A DNA stretch of 64,000 bases from Gamsiella multidivaricata (taxonomy: Eukaryota > Mortierellomycota > Mortierellomycetes > Mortierellales > Mortierellaceae), in the NCBI RefSeq assembly GCF_025024155.1, contig NW_026251750.1, positions 62,001-126,000 on the forward strand, written 5' to 3'. The translations under genes and the position numbers were made by a program. The notes under the pieces are model-generated. The model did not search any database. It saw only the letters and a program-made list of their open reading frames with translations, and was not told where the DNA came from. Within the stretch, counting starts at the first letter, position 1, and every line of letters starts with the position of its first letter. Below, piece by piece: positions 36,450 to 42,869 of the stretch.

Positions 36450-37299
36450 ACCTGGGCGGGAGATAAAAATAGTTGCCCTTACCATCCTTCATCAAGAACA
36501 TCTCGACTCCAAAGACACCGGCTCCCGAGAGACTTGAGATGGCGTTCTCAGCAACCTTGCGAGCCCTCTCCTGGATCGAGGTCGAGAAGGTCTCGTCCGA
36601 AGTGCCCGTCAGTCCACGACCGACCTGAGCGGGGGCAAAGACCAAATGGCAGATGCTGTTCTTATGAACGGTCTCGACAACAGGGTACGAGCGCACCTCG
36701 CCAGTAATAGACCGCACGACCATGACAGCCAACTCACGATCGAACTTTGCCCATCGCTCTGCATATAGTGGCACACCTGGGGCCAATTTGGATCGAGCAC
36801 CTGTGAGATCTTCCTCGGATCGGACCACATAGTTGCCTCGGCCGTCGTAGGCCATGGTCTTGGCCTTCAGCATGAATGGGTATCCGAATTGCTGTCCTGC
36901 CTGCTCAATTGCCTCCTGGTCCGGACAATCCAACGAGTCTGCGAGGGGGATGCTATGTTTTGCAAGGTGCTGCTTCTGAAGGTACTTGTCCTGAATCAGC
37001 GAGATGGTGGCAGGCGTTGGGTGGATAGATTTGCCCGAGGCCTCCAACTCCTTGAGGACGTGGGTATCGACATGCTCGATCTCGACGGTAATGACATCGA
37101 CGGTCTCTGCGAGCTCACGGATCTTGGTTGCATCCTTGAAGGATCCGTGCAGGTGCTGCTGGGAGGCGTTCAGCTGCTTGGCAGGCGAGTCGACAGGCTC
37201 GTCGAGGATCGTGAGGGAGATGTTGAGACGGGATGCAGCCTCCTGGACCATGCGACCGAGCTGTCCACCACCGAGGATTCCGACCTTGCGAGATTCCAT
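35396..37299 (-). CDS. ADE2: Phosphoribosylaminoimidazole carboxylase (AIR carboxylase)
   Basis: Cytosolic enzyme of purine biosynthesis converting AIR to CAIR. It is a fusion of an ATP-grasp PurK-like domain and a PurE mutase domain, as in other fungi. Exons are 37299-36483, 36367-35679 and 35596-35396, in phase, 568 aa (yeast Ade2 is 571). The start is the ATG at 37299. PurK features include [13 protein letters not shown] at the N-terminus, [32 protein letters not shown] and [15 protein letters not shown]. PurE features include [41 protein letters not shown] and PVIGVPVRG. Intron 1 contains a run of about 27 A. A DNA transposon is inserted 172 bp upstream of the start codon, so promoter function may be altered. 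Confidence 0.95.
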
Positions 37300-37462
37300 T
37301 GCTGTTGTGGATTGGACGATGAGTGTTGTCTGTTTCGTGAGAAGGCGAAGGGTGGGAATGCCGGTTGATCGAGAGAAGAAAGCGCTCGCTTCCAGAGCGA
37401 TAAGAGTTTTTATTTTGCTTTTTAGATTTGCATGTTCCTTTTTGGGTAGACCATTTTTTGCG

Positions 37463-37471
37463 GGGAAATTC
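37463..37471 (+). repeat. Left target-site duplication GGGAAATTC
   Basis: GGGAAATTC directly precedes the left terminal inverted repeat and is repeated directly after the right one. If the first C of CTAGG belongs to the transposon, the duplication is 7 bp (GGAAATT) instead of 9. Confidence 0.75.
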
Positions 37472-38100
37472 TAGGCTCGATTCCAGCCCTCTCTTATTGT
37501 AATTTCCTTATTTGTCAATTCAATGCAGAGGGGCTGGTAAAAAATGATGGGTCCAAGGCCGACATCTTAAAAGGAAGTTGATTAAGGGGTAATACTGGGC
37601 AAAACATGCAATAACAGAGTAGTCCGCTCCTTCGCTTGCACGGTGGCCCTGCCTTGAGTACAGAGCACCGGCCAGTCATCTCAGTCTAATCATCTTCAGC
37701 TACTCCATTCCTGTCCCAATGACGAACCCTGCATCAAACATTGACACCCCCTCCCCTCCTGCGCATGTCACTGCTGACGGTAGTCCGCCGTGGGCACCAC
37801 GTGTGGAAAGAACGAGTAAGTGGAACGCGTCGCAAAACGCGTTGACGAATTTAAAAAAAAATCTACCCCTTTCTAACCTCGGCACTTCCTAGTTATTGTA
37901 TTGGACTCTCCCTCCCCTCCTGCATCACCCACAGCTCGATTCTCTGACCGCGCTGTACAAAAACGACCGCGTGTGGAGAGAGGACGTAAGTAGAACGCGT
38001 GCCAAAAGCCGTCAGTAGAAACTACACTGGAAAAAAAACTATTCTAACCATGGCATACTTCTCCTCTCTTATCTATTTGCAACTTCCCATTAGCCCTCTC
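37472..38100 (+). repeat. Left terminal inverted repeat (629 bp) carrying transposase exons 1-2
   Basis: This repeat is the inverted counterpart of 42232-42860. All segments compared by eye (37541-37730, 37741-38100) match base for base. Similarity stops abruptly at 38100, a few bases into transposase exon 3. The repeat contains two small exons with good donors (GTAAGT at 37816 and 37986), CTAAC branch sites and TAG acceptors. It also has three ACGCGT boxes at 37825, 37837 and 37995. The exon 1-intron 1 and exon 2-intron 2 units resemble each other, indicating an internal tandem duplication. Confidence 0.92.
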
Positions 38101-40483
38101 TACCAGCCTAGTGCCCGCCGACGAGGTGCTCGAGTCTCAATTCGTTTTCGAATCCTTTGCTGGGCAGGCACAGGCGCCAACATTTGCCTCTGTCGATGAC
38201 GCCCTGCAACAGATCCTCGATATGATCTCCACTTGTGGCTACACCCTGCGCACCTTCTTGCTTGCAGTCTTTGACTCAAAAGGCACTGCTATTCGAAAAC
38301 GGGCCAGATTGTTCTACTCGAAAGGCGGTCCTGGGGCGATGGTCGATTGCTGGAGTCAAGGTCTTCGACATTCTTCGAACGACGAGTCCTTCATGACGGC
38401 CGTTACAAACACGGTTATCGATCGAGCACACACCGAACTCAATGCACTCACAGCACTCCAGAGCCTGCGACAACCGACCACCGAGATTTCCAGCGAGTCT
38501 ATCGAGAGTTTTTCGTTGGAGCATATCGAAAAGCAGCTCCAACGTACATCGCCCAATATCGTACGAGTCTTGCAAGGATTCGCACTCGCTAACCACAAGA
38601 CCTCAGACTTAGAGAACACTTCATTCGTTGCTACTATCGGCAGCTTGCTGCTGCATCATCGGAGCCAAAAGTCAAACTATTTTCAGATGATGATTGGACT
38701 CTTTTTGTACAGCACAGGCTGTCCAAAGCGTGTGGTTACAGTGCTCTCCCAGGCGGGACTATCCGTGAGCTATCAGACGATCTGTAACGCCCTCAGAGCA
38801 CTTACAAAAGCGGCCCTGGCTAAGGTGCAGTCCATGGTCTTGGAGCAGCCATGGTTCCTGGTTTACGACAATATCAACATCCCGAATAGAAAATACGACC
38901 AGCGTGGCAACAACATTGACACATTCGAGAATGGGACAACAGCAACCGTTGTGATCGGAGAAGATCTTGGCCACCCGCAGGCCCCAGCTCAGGTTCCACG
39001 GGATCCAGTAACCTTGATGGATCTCTTGCCAGATAACGAGAACCGAGCTCATTTCAGGACTGTCTCTCAATATAATCTGGTGCACGTCCTACAGCGGCAC
39101 TTCGATATTTACAACCGCCGTTGCTCGATCCGTATCCCAGCTTTGAGCCCTCTTCCAGTGAAGCGCACAGAGACATTTCCTATGCCAAGTATGAAGATCG
39201 ACCAATCAACTGTGGAAGGCAACCTGGAGATCATCGAAACGGTCATGAAGAGTGCACTCAAGCTCTCAGATGAATGGTTTGATGGTGACGTACGGGTCGT
39301 TGTTGCAGGGGACCAGCTCACCGTGTGCAGGGTAGGATCCCTAAAGAGCTTGCGTGGAACAGACATTACGAGGTTCGCTCGGATGTCATGGGCAGTGCCT
39401 TTAATGCAACTCTTCCATCTCCAAATGCTACTCTGTAGCACAATTCTTCGCACTCACTACGGATCAGTCTCGACGCCGGGATCACTGGCTTTCAATATAG
39501 CCATGCTGGAGCGCAAACGTGTCAATCTGGACACACCCGATTTTCACGCTGCAGACGAGATTCTCAGGAACACTTTCGATGCTATGGTTCAGCGATTGTG
39601 GGAGATTGAGCTGGGTACGGAGGATTTGGGAAGTTTCGGGAAGGACACGCCAAGATTGGACGACTTCATCTCTGAAATGTCCGGAACCATTCGCCGGAAG
39701 TATTTCAGCAACTCGTCTGAGCTTGCTCAACATTTCAACAATGTGGATGTCAATGCACTCTTGTTCCTCAGGGATATGAATGTCTATATCGAACTTTCGG
39801 CAGCCATCAAAGCTGGTGACATCAAGCGTATCGAGGAGACACTGAAGCTGATTGTTGTGATGTTCCAGGCAGGGGGTACCAAGAATTATGCCAAAGAACT
39901 CTTGCGTCTCAGCTATGGGATTTGCTATGCATGGACAGAGCAGGAGAAGGCCGCCATTTTATCGTCTTGGTTGGTCAACACCAAGGGCAAGGAGAATTCA
40001 TGGATTCCTGCAGACTTGTACCAGGAACACAACAACCTCTTGACAAAGACAATCCATGCGGCAAAAGGAAGCAACATGTCCTGGGAAGTACTGGCCGACT
40101 CGGTTTCAATGAACATTCGCCTGTTCTCTAGGATCGCCGAGCAAGTTGAGACACAGTACGATGTCCTCCACTACAACAGCAGCTTCCACTCAACAGTATC
40201 AGCAGAGATGGACATTCAAAAAATAACCCTGTCGCTCAAAGAACACAAGATTTTTGCTAACGCACCTCGTGAGGACTGGTCCGACTTGCCACTTGCGAAA
40301 GATCTGCTTAAAGAAGGCATGAGAAAGCTGGTTGCAAGAATGACAAGACTCGATGAGTTCATCAAAGGACTAGAACATGAGGTCGGTAACGGAGAGGCAG
40401 ATGATACAGCTGAGGATCTTGAGTTAGAACGAAGCCAGGCTGAGCAGTTTATTTCCTCATGCGTAGCTCCTATGCCGAAGTAA
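37719..40483 (+). CDS. Academ/DUF6589-like DDE transposase
   Basis: Probable transposase of the element. Exons 37719-37815, 37893-37985 and 38094-40483 join in phase to 859 aa; the first two lie wholly in the inverted repeat. Exon 3 alone is open from 38094 but has no ATG near its start, which supports the spliced start at 37719. The N-terminus is Pro/Ser-rich with a repeated D-(T/S)-PSPPA...PRVER unit and a basic QKRPRVERG patch, a likely nuclear signal. A DDE-type triad fits D322 (VYDNINIPNRK), D470 (VVVAGDQLTVCR) and E665 (GGTKNYAKELLRL). These motifs are those I associate with the fungal DUF6589 family. There is a C-terminal coiled, acidic tail. There is no frameshift or premature stop. 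Confidence 0.82.
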
Positions 40484-40554
40484 TAAAGGCCGATATGGTT
40501 GAACTACACGGGCAATACCATTCGGTTTCTATGAGTACCTAATAGAATGACCTA

Positions 40555-42282
40555 CTATCGAAGACGCTTGGTTCTTCCGTCACGGAAGCTTGAAGCATTC
40601 GAGTTCTTAAAGGGATCTCGCCGGTTTGGTATGCTCTGTGGTACTTGAGGAGCTGGGACGAGTGAAGGTTGACGAACTTCAACGGGGCTGGTATTGAACT
40701 GACTCACTTCACCATCCATTTCCTTGTTCAGGGAGATGAGAGTGCTGGCGAGATGCTCCAGCATCCATGGCTGTAGGGGCGTCCACTCAATGATAGATTT
40801 AATCGACTCCGCAGATGTGACCACAGCTGACTTCTCGCCAAGCTTATCAACAGACTCGTCTACCATCACGCAGCATTCTGTGAAAAAGTCGCAGAGTGGC
40901 GAGTAATACTTCTGGTACATCTCACGTCTCCAATCCCGTAAAGCTGCTTTGGCGAGTTCCTTTTGATGTTGTGTACGCCTTGGGGTTCGCGCCTTTTGGA
41001 TGCAAGCAGCTGTGCTGTCCTTGAAGACGACAAGACGAGGCAGATCGGACGTTTCCAGTAGGGGGTGACAAAGGTCACAGCAGTTCCCGTTAGGCAGAAC
41101 CTCATTGCCAAACACCTCGTTGAGGACCTTCCTGCGACATTCTTCTGTAGTGATATATTGGGCCAAGTGGGGATCGCCGAAAGTGGTCTCGGGTGAGGGT
41201 CGTGGTACGACTAAAATTCCTTGGCCTTGATGTTGAGGGCAGCGAGCTGCACGGCCAAGACGCTGCACCAGTGATATGATACTGGAAGGACACTTGAATT
41301 GAATGACACGAACGACATCGCTGATGTCACAGCCCATTCCAGCCGCCTCAGTAGACAGCAGCAACATGATATCGCCTTGTGCAAATTGCCTCATGATGCC
41401 TTTCTTGCAGTCTTCAGACAAGACAGAATGGTAGGCGGCAATCTTGGGCTTTAGAACATCAGACGCCAACTCTCGCAGATACGAGAGGGCTTCAGTGGTC
41501 TCAAGGCGGGTCTCGAAGTAAACGATGGTCTTCTTGACGTCGGTGGTGAGAAAATCGAGGCATCTGAGCCTCACTTTGGACTCGAAGTATCGCACTTCTA
41601 ACCTGACATTGGGGCGATCATTGCCGACGTTGAAGATGGTGACATCCTGACGGAACCGAGCCTTGCTCCTGACATCCTGCAGGGCTTTAGCCGGAAGCGT
41701 GGCAGACACAGCAACCATCGCGACTCCTGGAGGTAGCTTCGCTCGTAGATCTCCAATACGGCCATAGGACTTCCTGAATGTAGTACCCCAGGTGCTGATA
41801 CAATGAGCCTCATCCATGATCACTGCAAGCAATCGACCTCGCCAGCCATCGTTTTGCCAGAGATTTTTAAAGCGCTGGCTCTGAAATATGATCTCCGGCG
41901 TCATGAAGACCGCCCTGTAAGTTCCGTTCACAAGTTTGTTGAAGGTATCGTGTTCCAGGTGACCACCAGTGAGCATAATAGCACTGATATCCAAGTCTTC
42001 CAGCTTTTGCCGCTGCTCCTCCATTAACGCCTTGAGTGGAGATATTACGACAATGACGCGGTCGGTCCAAAGTATCAAGGGAAGAAAATACACGAGAGTC
42101 TTGCCCCATCCGCATCCAGCGATAAGTATGCAGTCTTGAGCACGGCCGATACAATCAACAACCTTAAGCTGCAAGTCCTTGGGGGTAACTTGAAATACAT
42201 CTTGGCATCGTTTAGTGGTATCCCGGGCAAGGAGAGGGCTAATGGGAAGTTGCAAATAGATAAGAGAGGAGAAGTATGCCAT
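40555..42282 (-). CDS. RecQ-like superfamily 2 DNA helicase of the transposon
   Basis: Probable helper helicase for transposition. From the ATG at 42282 (good context, CCATGG) it is 575 aa. SF2 motifs are: Walker A AGCGWGKT (about residues 55-62), MDEAHCIS (motif II, RecQ style), VSATLP (motif III) and VQRLGRAAR (motif VI). A RecQ-type zinc module follows, C..RRKVLNEVFGNE then GNCCDLC. The C-terminus is disordered and ends in a basic GRTKRLR. RQC winged-helix and HRDC domains of cellular RecQ proteins are not apparent. The TIR exons upstream would join out of frame at the mirror acceptor (42238). The protein may instead start at 42282 inside that intron, or use an AG before 42200 that restores frame. 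The start is therefore uncertain. Confidence 0.82.
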   Translation of the reverse strand: MAYFSSLIYLQLPISPLLARDTTKRCQDVFQVTPKDLQLKVVDCIGRAQDCILIAGCGWGKTLVYFLPLILWTDRVIVVISPLKALMEEQRQKLEDLDISAIMLTGGHLEHDTFNKLVNGTYRAVFMTPEIIFQSQRFKNLWQNDGWRGRLLAVIMDEAHCISTWGTTFRKSYGRIGDLRAKLPPGVAMVAVSATLPAKALQDVRSKARFRQDVTIFNVGNDRPNVRLEVRYFESKVRLRCLDFLTTDVKKTIVYFETRLETTEALSYLRELASDVLKPKIAAYHSVLSEDCKKGIMRQFAQGDIMLLLSTEAAGMGCDISDVVRVIQFKCPSSIISLVQRLGRAARCPQHQGQGILVVPRPSPETTFGDPHLAQYITTEECRRKVLNEVFGNEVLPNGNCCDLCHPLLETSDLPRLVVFKDSTAACIQKARTPRRTQHQKELAKAALRDWRREMYQKYYSPLCDFFTECCVMVDESVDKLGEKSAVVTSAESIKSIIEWTPLQPWMLEHLASTLISLNKEMDGEVSQFNTSPVEVRQPSLVPAPQVPQSIPNRRDPFKNSNASSFRDGRTKRLR

Positions 42283-42860
42283 GGTTAGAATAGTTTTTTT
42301 TCCAGTGTAGTTTCTACTGACGGCTTTTGGCACGCGTTCTACTTACGTCCTCTCTCCACACGCGGTCGTTTTTGTACAGCGCGGTCAGAGAATCGAGCTG
42401 TGGGTGATGCAGGAGGGGAGGGAGAGTCCAATACAATAACTAGGAAGTGCCGAGGTTAGAAAGGGGTAGATTTTTTTTTAAATTCGTCAACGCGTTTTGC
42501 GACGCGTTCCACTTACTCGTTCTTTCCACACGTGGTGCCCACGGCGGACTACCGTCAGCAGTGACATGCGCAGGAGGGGAGGGGGTGTCAATGTTTGATG
42601 CAGGGTTCGTCATTGGGACAGGAATGGAGTAGCTGAAGATGATTAGACTGAGATGACTGGCCGGTGCTCTGTACTCAAGGCAGGGCCACCGTGCAAGCGA
42701 AGGAGCGGACTACTCTGTTATTGCATGTTTTGCCCAGTATTACCCCTTAATCAACTTCCTTTTAAGATGTCGGCCTTGGACCCATCATTTTTTACCAGCC
42801 CCTCTGCATTGAATTGACAAATAAGGAAATTACAATAAGAGAGGGCTGGAATCGAGCCTA
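42232..42860 (-). repeat. Right terminal inverted repeat (629 bp)
   Basis: Inverted copy of 37472-38100, the same length to the base. The mirror images of transposase exons 1 and 2 fall at 42613-42517 and 42439-42347, pointing at the helicase gene. ACGCGT boxes fall at 42502, 42490 and 42332. Both genes are thus transcribed inward from the same promoter-bearing sequence. Confidence 0.92.
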
Positions 42861-42869
42861 GGGAAATTC
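42861..42869 (+). repeat. Right target-site duplication GGGAAATTC
   Basis: Direct repeat of 37463-37471 immediately outside the right inverted repeat. The pre-insertion site would have read GCGGGGAAATTCCGCCG. Confidence 0.75.

What the first reader, a model, noticed from the sequence alone, without database searches (positions are those of the whole stretch)
37472..42860. Complete, apparently intact Academ-like transposon carrying transposase plus RecQ-like helicase
The sequence shows 629-bp inverted ends, a flanking direct repeat and two full-length convergent genes. One gene has a D322/D470/E665 pattern in motifs YDNIN, GDQLT and NYAKELL. The other has a full SF2 helicase set with a RecQ zinc module. 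The pairing fits the AcademH lineage as I recall it. Intact frames and repeats with no differences in the segments compared suggest a recent, possibly active insertion. A Mortierella-type copy with resolved ends would be a useful reference for a poorly studied superfamily.
Basis: partly seen in the sequence, partly recalled or inferred. Interest (0 to 1): 0.88.

Follow-up and report, generated by a model that had tools for sequence, protein, structure and literature searches.

The report
Fungal transposon with gene-starting inverted ends
A complete, probably young jumping gene in a soil fungus carries a cutting enzyme and a DNA-unwinding enzyme, and its two identical ends seem to reach into the start of both genes, which may explain how the two are made together.

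Summary
Window 37472-42860 is a 5,389-bp element with perfect 629-bp inverted ends, a perfect 9-bp target duplication and two open convergent genes: a DUF6589 transposase with conserved D/D/E residues and a RecQ-type helicase. The host is very probably Gamsiella multidivaricata. Its genome also holds a deleted sister copy with its own 9-bp duplication, a 62-bp end fragment and diverged families with the same gene pair. AcademH fits (helicase, 9-bp duplication, no nuclease match), but the AcademH paper and Repbase were not available; the link from DUF6589 to Academ is recalled.

Beyond the finding: the repeats reach the coding starts. In the window the helicase starts at an ATG inside the right repeat; the transposase may be spliced from two exons in the left repeat, or start at an ATG further in. 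In four of eight scored families both genes run in frame from one ATG inside the repeat, and in a fifth by an inferred first exon. Arms change together (83 mirrored differences, 1 arm-specific, in one pair). I read the repeat as a shared promoter-and-start cassette kept alike by copying. No expression data were available.

The parts
37472..42860 (.). complete element, 5,389 bp, TAGGCTCG...CGAGCCTA
37472..38100 (+). left terminal inverted repeat, 629 bp
42232..42860 (-). right terminal inverted repeat, 629 bp, 100% identical to the left
37463..37471 (.). target-site duplication GGGAAATTC, left copy
42861..42869 (.). target-site duplication GGGAAATTC, right copy
37719..37815 (+). predicted transposase exon 1 (inside left repeat), starts ATG
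   Evidence: no other two-intron model with the same signal words and a product over 350 aa on either strand of the window (search designed after the model was seen)
37816..37892 (+). predicted intron 1, 77 nt, GTAAGT...CTAAC...TAG
37893..37985 (+). predicted transposase exon 2 (inside left repeat)
   Evidence: a diverged tandem copy of the exon 1/intron 1 unit
37986..38093 (+). predicted intron 2, 108 nt; holds the left copy of the helicase ATG at 38050
38094..40483 (+). transposase main exon to stop; DUF6589; catalytic D codons 38867-38869 and 39311-39313, E codon 39896-39898; alternative first ATG at 38222
   Evidence: codon coordinates follow from the frame start 38048
40555..42282 (-). 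RecQ-type SF2 helicase, 575 aa, ATG inside the right repeat
42347..42439 (-). mirror of transposase exon 2 in the right repeat; out of frame with the helicase if spliced the same way
   Evidence: (coordinates mirrored from the left arm)
42517..42613 (-). mirror of transposase exon 1 in the right repeat
   Evidence: coordinates mirrored from the left arm

Best explanation
It is an autonomous DNA transposon of the AcademH type. Shown by sequence: intact ends, 9-bp target duplication, an open transposase frame with the D/D/E pattern, an open RecQ-type helicase, and a deleted copy that was inserted elsewhere with the same ends. Inferred from known DDE transposases: the transposase binds and cuts the ends and joins them to target strands 9 bp apart; the helicase unwinds DNA at the ends or during gap repair. 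Inferred from anatomy: each inverted repeat is a promoter-and-start cassette, so both genes are driven by the same sequence from opposite ends. In the window the transposase is most likely read from repeat exons 1-2 spliced to the main exon, and the helicase from an ATG that lies in intron 2 of the same cassette. The arms stay alike because one arm is copied onto the other during or after transposition, which spreads inward until it meets gene-specific coding sequence.
For: Exact 9-bp duplications in 6 of 9 insertions scripted: window, C104, C99, C96, C147c, C148; C147a shows TTTAGGGGT on both sides when read by eye across the elements nested in its end (sequences). Protein families. Both genes constrained against the C99 family: dN/dS about 0.26 and 0.23 with dS near 1.7, so approximate. 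Splice model: two GTAAGT donors, CTAAC sites and in-frame joins; an exon-intron tandem duplication scoring 95 against a best of 42 in 2,000 mononucleotide shuffles. 19 of 24 aligned relatives begin upstream of the alternative ATG at 38222. Repeat reaches coding starts elsewhere: one in-frame ATG leading into both gene bodies in C99, C147a, C147b and C15, an inferred shared first exon in C148, a shared open frame without ATG in C22. The deposited model P0088 for the C147b helicase starts at that ATG. Arms: 83 mirrored, 1 arm-specific (C147b/C15); 42 and 0 over the first 160 bp (window/C99).
Against: No transcript, protein or transposition data. The transposase has an in-frame ATG at 38222, and 3 of 24 aligned relatives (P0007, P0013, P0019) have annotated starts there, so splicing is not required. 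The window's two genes do not share a frame in the repeat, and C147c/C147d start just inside the repeat boundary. The deposited C99/C96 models start downstream of the repeat (P0009, P0077). The shared peptide shows no codon-position signal between C147b and C15: 6/4/5 and 7/3/6 changes by codon position in 30 codons, 3 synonymous and 11 non-synonymous codons on each arm. In C125, a decayed relative, the longest transposase frame starts about 800 bp inside the repeat. C147c arms differ at 19 sites, C147b arms at 7 with 3 gap positions. The structure job never returned.
Confidence: 0.75

Rival explanations
1. The identical arms reflect only a very recent insertion: the arms happened to be identical in the parent copy and there is no homogenising process.
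For: The window's duplication is perfect and its frames are open; its closest copy differs from it at few positions in the retained ends.
Against: The C99 family, about 70% alike where it aligns, also has 420-bp arms with no mismatch, and differences between C147b and C15 are mirrored in both arms 83 to 1. Recent transposition alone does not copy a mutation from one arm to the other.
Confidence: 0.15
2. The repeat carries only promoters and leaders, and the transposase starts inside the repeat boundary, at the ATG at 38222; the repeat exons are not used.
For: 3 of 24 aligned relatives have annotated starts at that place. Deposited models for C99/C96 start downstream of the repeat. MuDR of maize has convergent genes driven by promoters in its repeats (PMC3310237, passages).
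Against: 19 of 24 aligned relatives start further upstream (some are automatic or partial models). The helicase frame has no ATG between the repeat and its conserved start, so the helicase at least seems to start inside the repeat.
Confidence: 0.35
3. A Mutator-like element, which also makes 9-bp duplications and can carry two convergent genes.
For: 9-bp duplication; repeat-driven convergent genes and 9-bp duplications are described for Mutator elements (passages).
Against: No transposase model other than DUF6589 matches in Pfam at E<=1; the second gene is a RecQ-type helicase.
Confidence: 0.03
4. A domesticated host gene pair in a decayed element.
For: Only one full-length copy of this family was found in the assembly (lower bound).
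Against: Perfect ends, a perfect duplication and a separately inserted deleted copy are what a mobile element leaves.
Confidence: 0.02

Closest known systems
AcademH (Kojima 2020, Mobile DNA 11:15; not held, known here only through passages of PMC10045372 and PMC10799480)
   Same: Helicase beside the transposase, 9- or 10-bp duplications, low copy number in fungi
   Different: Start codons inside the repeats are not mentioned in the passages seen; whether the original paper notes them could not be checked
MuDR / Mutator (PMC3310237 and PMC5014426, passages)
   Same: Two convergent genes transcribed from promoters in the repeats (MuDR); 9-bp duplications (fungal Hop and Mutyl)
   Different: Other transposase family; no helicase named; coding starts within the repeat not described in the passages seen
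AcademX (PMC10045372, passages)
   Same: Same superfamily by that paper
   Different: Described there with a nuclease and 3- or 4-bp duplications
RecQ helicases (WRN, BLM, bacterial RecQ)
   Same: Core aligned over residues 35-357, best E 8.8e-35; NCBIfam recQ_fam E 1.5e-60
   Different: Below the NCBIfam cut-off (205.4 against 219.8 bits); zinc module below Pfam's cut-off and no RQC winged-helix or HRDC match

Membership tests
AcademH | Transposase of the Academ superfamily | tested here: inconclusive
   DUF6589 E 1e-102; that DUF6589 is the Academ transposase is recalled, no Repbase comparison possible
AcademH | Encodes a helicase | tested here: met
   DEAD and Helicase_C above cut-off; RecQ relatives best
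AcademH | 9- or 10-bp target duplications | tested here: met
   Window 9 bp; exact 9 bp in 6 of 9 insertions scripted; C147b none exact, C22 3 bp, C117 none. Definition from a passage of PMC10045372
AcademH | Terminal inverted repeats | tested here: met
   629 bp, 100%
AcademX | Encodes a nuclease; 3- or 4-bp duplications | tested here: not met
   No nuclease family matched in either protein; 9-bp duplication
Mutator-like elements | MULE transposase domain | tested here: not met
   No such Pfam match at E<=1
KDZ or hAT | KDZ or hAT transposase domain | tested here: not met
   No such Pfam match at E<=1
RecQ helicase family | Score above the family cut-off | tested here: not met
   TIGR00614 205.4 bits against a cut-off of 219.8, E 1.5e-60; so RecQ-like rather than a member by that model
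DDE (RNase H fold) transposase | RNase H fold holding D, D and E | not tested
Active transposon | Movement observed or empty allele in another strain | not testable with these tools
   No second strain's DNA was available; a second Gamsiella record encodes a closely similar partial protein (P0001)

The most novel reading that the evidence does not exclude
In these helicase-carrying transposons the inverted repeat is a self-copying expression cassette: helicase-assisted strand copying rewrites one arm from the other and spreads inward until it fixes one promoter, leader and start codon for both genes, so that transposase and helicase share a short N-terminus (as read in C99, C147a, C147b and C15) or are split by splicing and alternative start within one cassette (the window).
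Probability: 0.22. Interest if true: 0.7.

Novelty: new member of a known kind. Interest (0 to 1): 0.45.

Why it matters
An element with defined ends, open genes, a deleted derivative and sister families in one genome is a usable reference for a lineage for which I found no experimental mechanism in the papers listed. Repeat-encoded starts give a testable idea of how a two-gene transposon keeps its proteins co-expressed, and the concerted change of the arms asks what copies one arm onto the other, with the helicase as a candidate.

Tried and rejected
Shared N-terminal peptide as a conserved functional domain: not supported. The peptides differ between families by eye, and between C147b and C15 they show no codon-position signal. 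An early reading that the window's two genes share MAYFSS... was wrong: that ATG leads only into the helicase. Helicase spliced like the transposase: ends after 117 residues.

Frame sharing. One search took 11 elements in 9 families. C104 has no genes, and C117 is too decayed, so 8 families were scored: 6 share the frame across the repeat edge (C99, C147a, C147b, C15, C148, C22) and 2 do not (window, C147c/d). For C148 and C22 the main transposase frames start 400-490 bp further in, so their first exon is inferred. Chance gives 6 of 8 with p 0.020; but C147b/C15 and C148/C22 are related pairs, and 4 of 6 has p 0.10, so this count alone is not strong. The figures (6 of 7, 5 of 6) leave cases out and are not used. 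C125 was not. Places known only from partial matches (such as C60, C63, C94, C137, C149, C152, C176) were not scored.

One search looked for two-intron models with the signal words of the model already seen, so it is a check for other such models, not an independent test. Shared N-termini elsewhere: 0 of 10 pairs, paired by equal contig length, an inference. Solved structures for the transposase profile: 0 at E<=1. Literature: in the lists (up to 20 rows each, titles and abstract openings) nothing pointed to start codons inside transposon repeats; one open-access library only.

Full report
What is there. The element runs from 37472 to 42860. Its arms are identical for 629 bp and diverge at position 630. 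GGGAAATTC flanks it on both sides. The + strand frame matches Pfam DUF6589 at E 1e-102 and no other transposase model at E<=1; the - strand frame matches DEAD and Helicase_C, with WRN chains best among solved structures (8.8e-35) and recQ_fam at 1.5e-60, below that model's cut-off. In 25 aligned transposases both aspartates are present in 25 and the glutamate in 23, with 2 gaps.

Where it is. The window lies in an assembly of 37.5 Mb and 180 contigs. Proteins annotated as Gamsiella multidivaricata lie on contigs of exactly the lengths of four contigs here: 470,868; 193,978; 325,551; 443,259. The duplicated target begins 163 bp upstream of the ATG of an ATP-grasp gene; calling it PurK/ADE2 is recall.

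Other copies. The nearest is C104:668103-669675, 1,573 bp, with both ends, its own duplication GTCTGCCTG and a stretch of about 205 bp between the retained ends. That stretch gives 31 matches in the genome, itself included, 13 of them printed as 100%. It runs TG...CA within its limits and looks like a solo LTR, so the deletion may have come from recombination between two LTR insertions (inference). A 62-bp end fragment lies on C48. Families with the same convergent pair lie on C99, C96, C147 (four copies), C148, C22, C15 and C117, with more partial places; C95, C96 and C1 carry copies with the same match scores as C148. Counts are lower bounds, as the tool says.

The repeats reach the genes in the window. 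Two exons inside the left repeat (37719-37815 and 37893-37985), with introns of 77 and 108 nt, join in frame to the main exon and give 859 residues. The two exon-intron units are a diverged tandem duplication, scoring 95 against at most 42 in 2,000 mononucleotide shuffles. The alternative is the ATG at 38222, which gives 753 residues; 3 of 24 aligned relatives start there, 19 start further upstream and 2 are truncated further downstream. I favour the spliced form but cannot decide it. Spliced the same way the right arm would stop after 117 residues; the helicase instead has an ATG at 42282 inside the right repeat, in sequence that is intron 2 on the other side, and no ATG between there and its conserved start.

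The repeats in other families. C99 and C96 have 420-bp arms and an in-frame ATG (MNRVKL...) leading into both genes; C147a has MNSYTNT, C147b MTAPPPYPPQPAIPCQVRTAERCLGADMD, and C15 a related peptide. In C148 an open frame from MAFTAAEES crosses the repeat edge on both sides, but the main transposase frame starts about 490 bp further in, so this is an inferred first exon; C22 has the same layout without an ATG. C147c and C147d start just inside the boundary. C117 and C125 are decayed. The deposited model P0088, on a contig of the length of C147, starts at the C147b ATG; the deposited C99 and C96 models start downstream. Of 10 pairs in other sources none shares more than the first methionine.

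Peptide or arrangement. Between C147b and C15 the first 30 shared codons differ at 6, 4 and 5 sites by codon position on one arm and 7, 3 and 6 on the other, with 3 synonymous and 11 non-synonymous codons each. The printed alignment shows no gap in the stretch from the ATG, while the upstream repeat has several. C15 is decayed, so this test is weak. I conclude that the place of the start, not the peptide, is the common feature.

Concerted arms. Over most of the C147b/C15 repeat, to about the shared start, 83 sites differ between the elements with both arms agreeing and 1 site differs between arms. Window/C99 over the first 160 bp gives 42 and 0; window/C104 gives 1 and 1; C147c has 19 differing sites between its arms. 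Arm identity ranges from 93.4% (C147c) to 100% (C99, C147a). So in several families one arm seems to be copied onto the other. Gene conversion, repair of the gap left by excision, or a helicase-assisted step would each do it; nothing here separates them.

How it probably works. From established knowledge of DDE transposases: the transposase binds and cuts the ends and joins them to target strands 9 bp apart. The helicase's role is inferred. Driving two convergent genes from identical repeats has a precedent in maize MuDR (PMC3310237, passages).

What is known. PMC10045372 (passages) says AcademH makes 9- or 10-bp duplications and AcademX 3- or 4-bp ones, and relates this to helicase and nuclease. 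PMC10799480 (passages) says AcademH was found as low-copy elements in Basidiomycota, Ascomycota and Mucoromycota. The original AcademH paper is not held, so I cannot say whether it notes repeat-encoded starts. I class the element as a new member of a known kind and keep the cassette as the novel case.

Score. An intact element of this kind is not surprising in this group. The repeat-encoded starts and the concerted arms lift the interest to 0.45.

Noticed in passing
window 37297-37463: The duplicated target begins 163 bp upstream of the start codon of an ATP-grasp gene (PurK/ADE2 type by recall) on the minus strand, so the element may alter its promoter.
   Followed up: partly
L021 2504-4076 (C104:668103-669675): Internally deleted copy whose middle is a sequence of about 205 bp with 31 matches in the genome, LTR-like (TG...CA); the flanking element sequence on its two sides differs.
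   Followed up: partly
C147:7772-25650: Nested elements: C147b and C147c lie in the last bases of the right end of C147a, C147c with duplication GGAACGAGC. Insertion into each other's ends may be a preference.
   Followed up: partly
L022 and L023 (C99, C96): Two full-length copies of a second family differing at 3 of 5,317 positions, each with its own 9-bp duplication: a second apparently recent family.
   Followed up: partly
L025 with L071 (C125:159705-169500): A decayed relative flanked by inverted arms of at least 2,019 bp with one mismatch, longer than the arms measured in the other families; the outer limit was not reached.
   Followed up: no
C147:20488-25611: Arms of C147c differ at 19 sites while those of the related C147d are identical over the 134 bp held, an exception to concerted change.
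   Followed up: no
transposase family DUF6589: A profile of 25 members matches no Protein Data Bank chain at E<=1, so no solved relative is found by sequence.
   Followed up: partly
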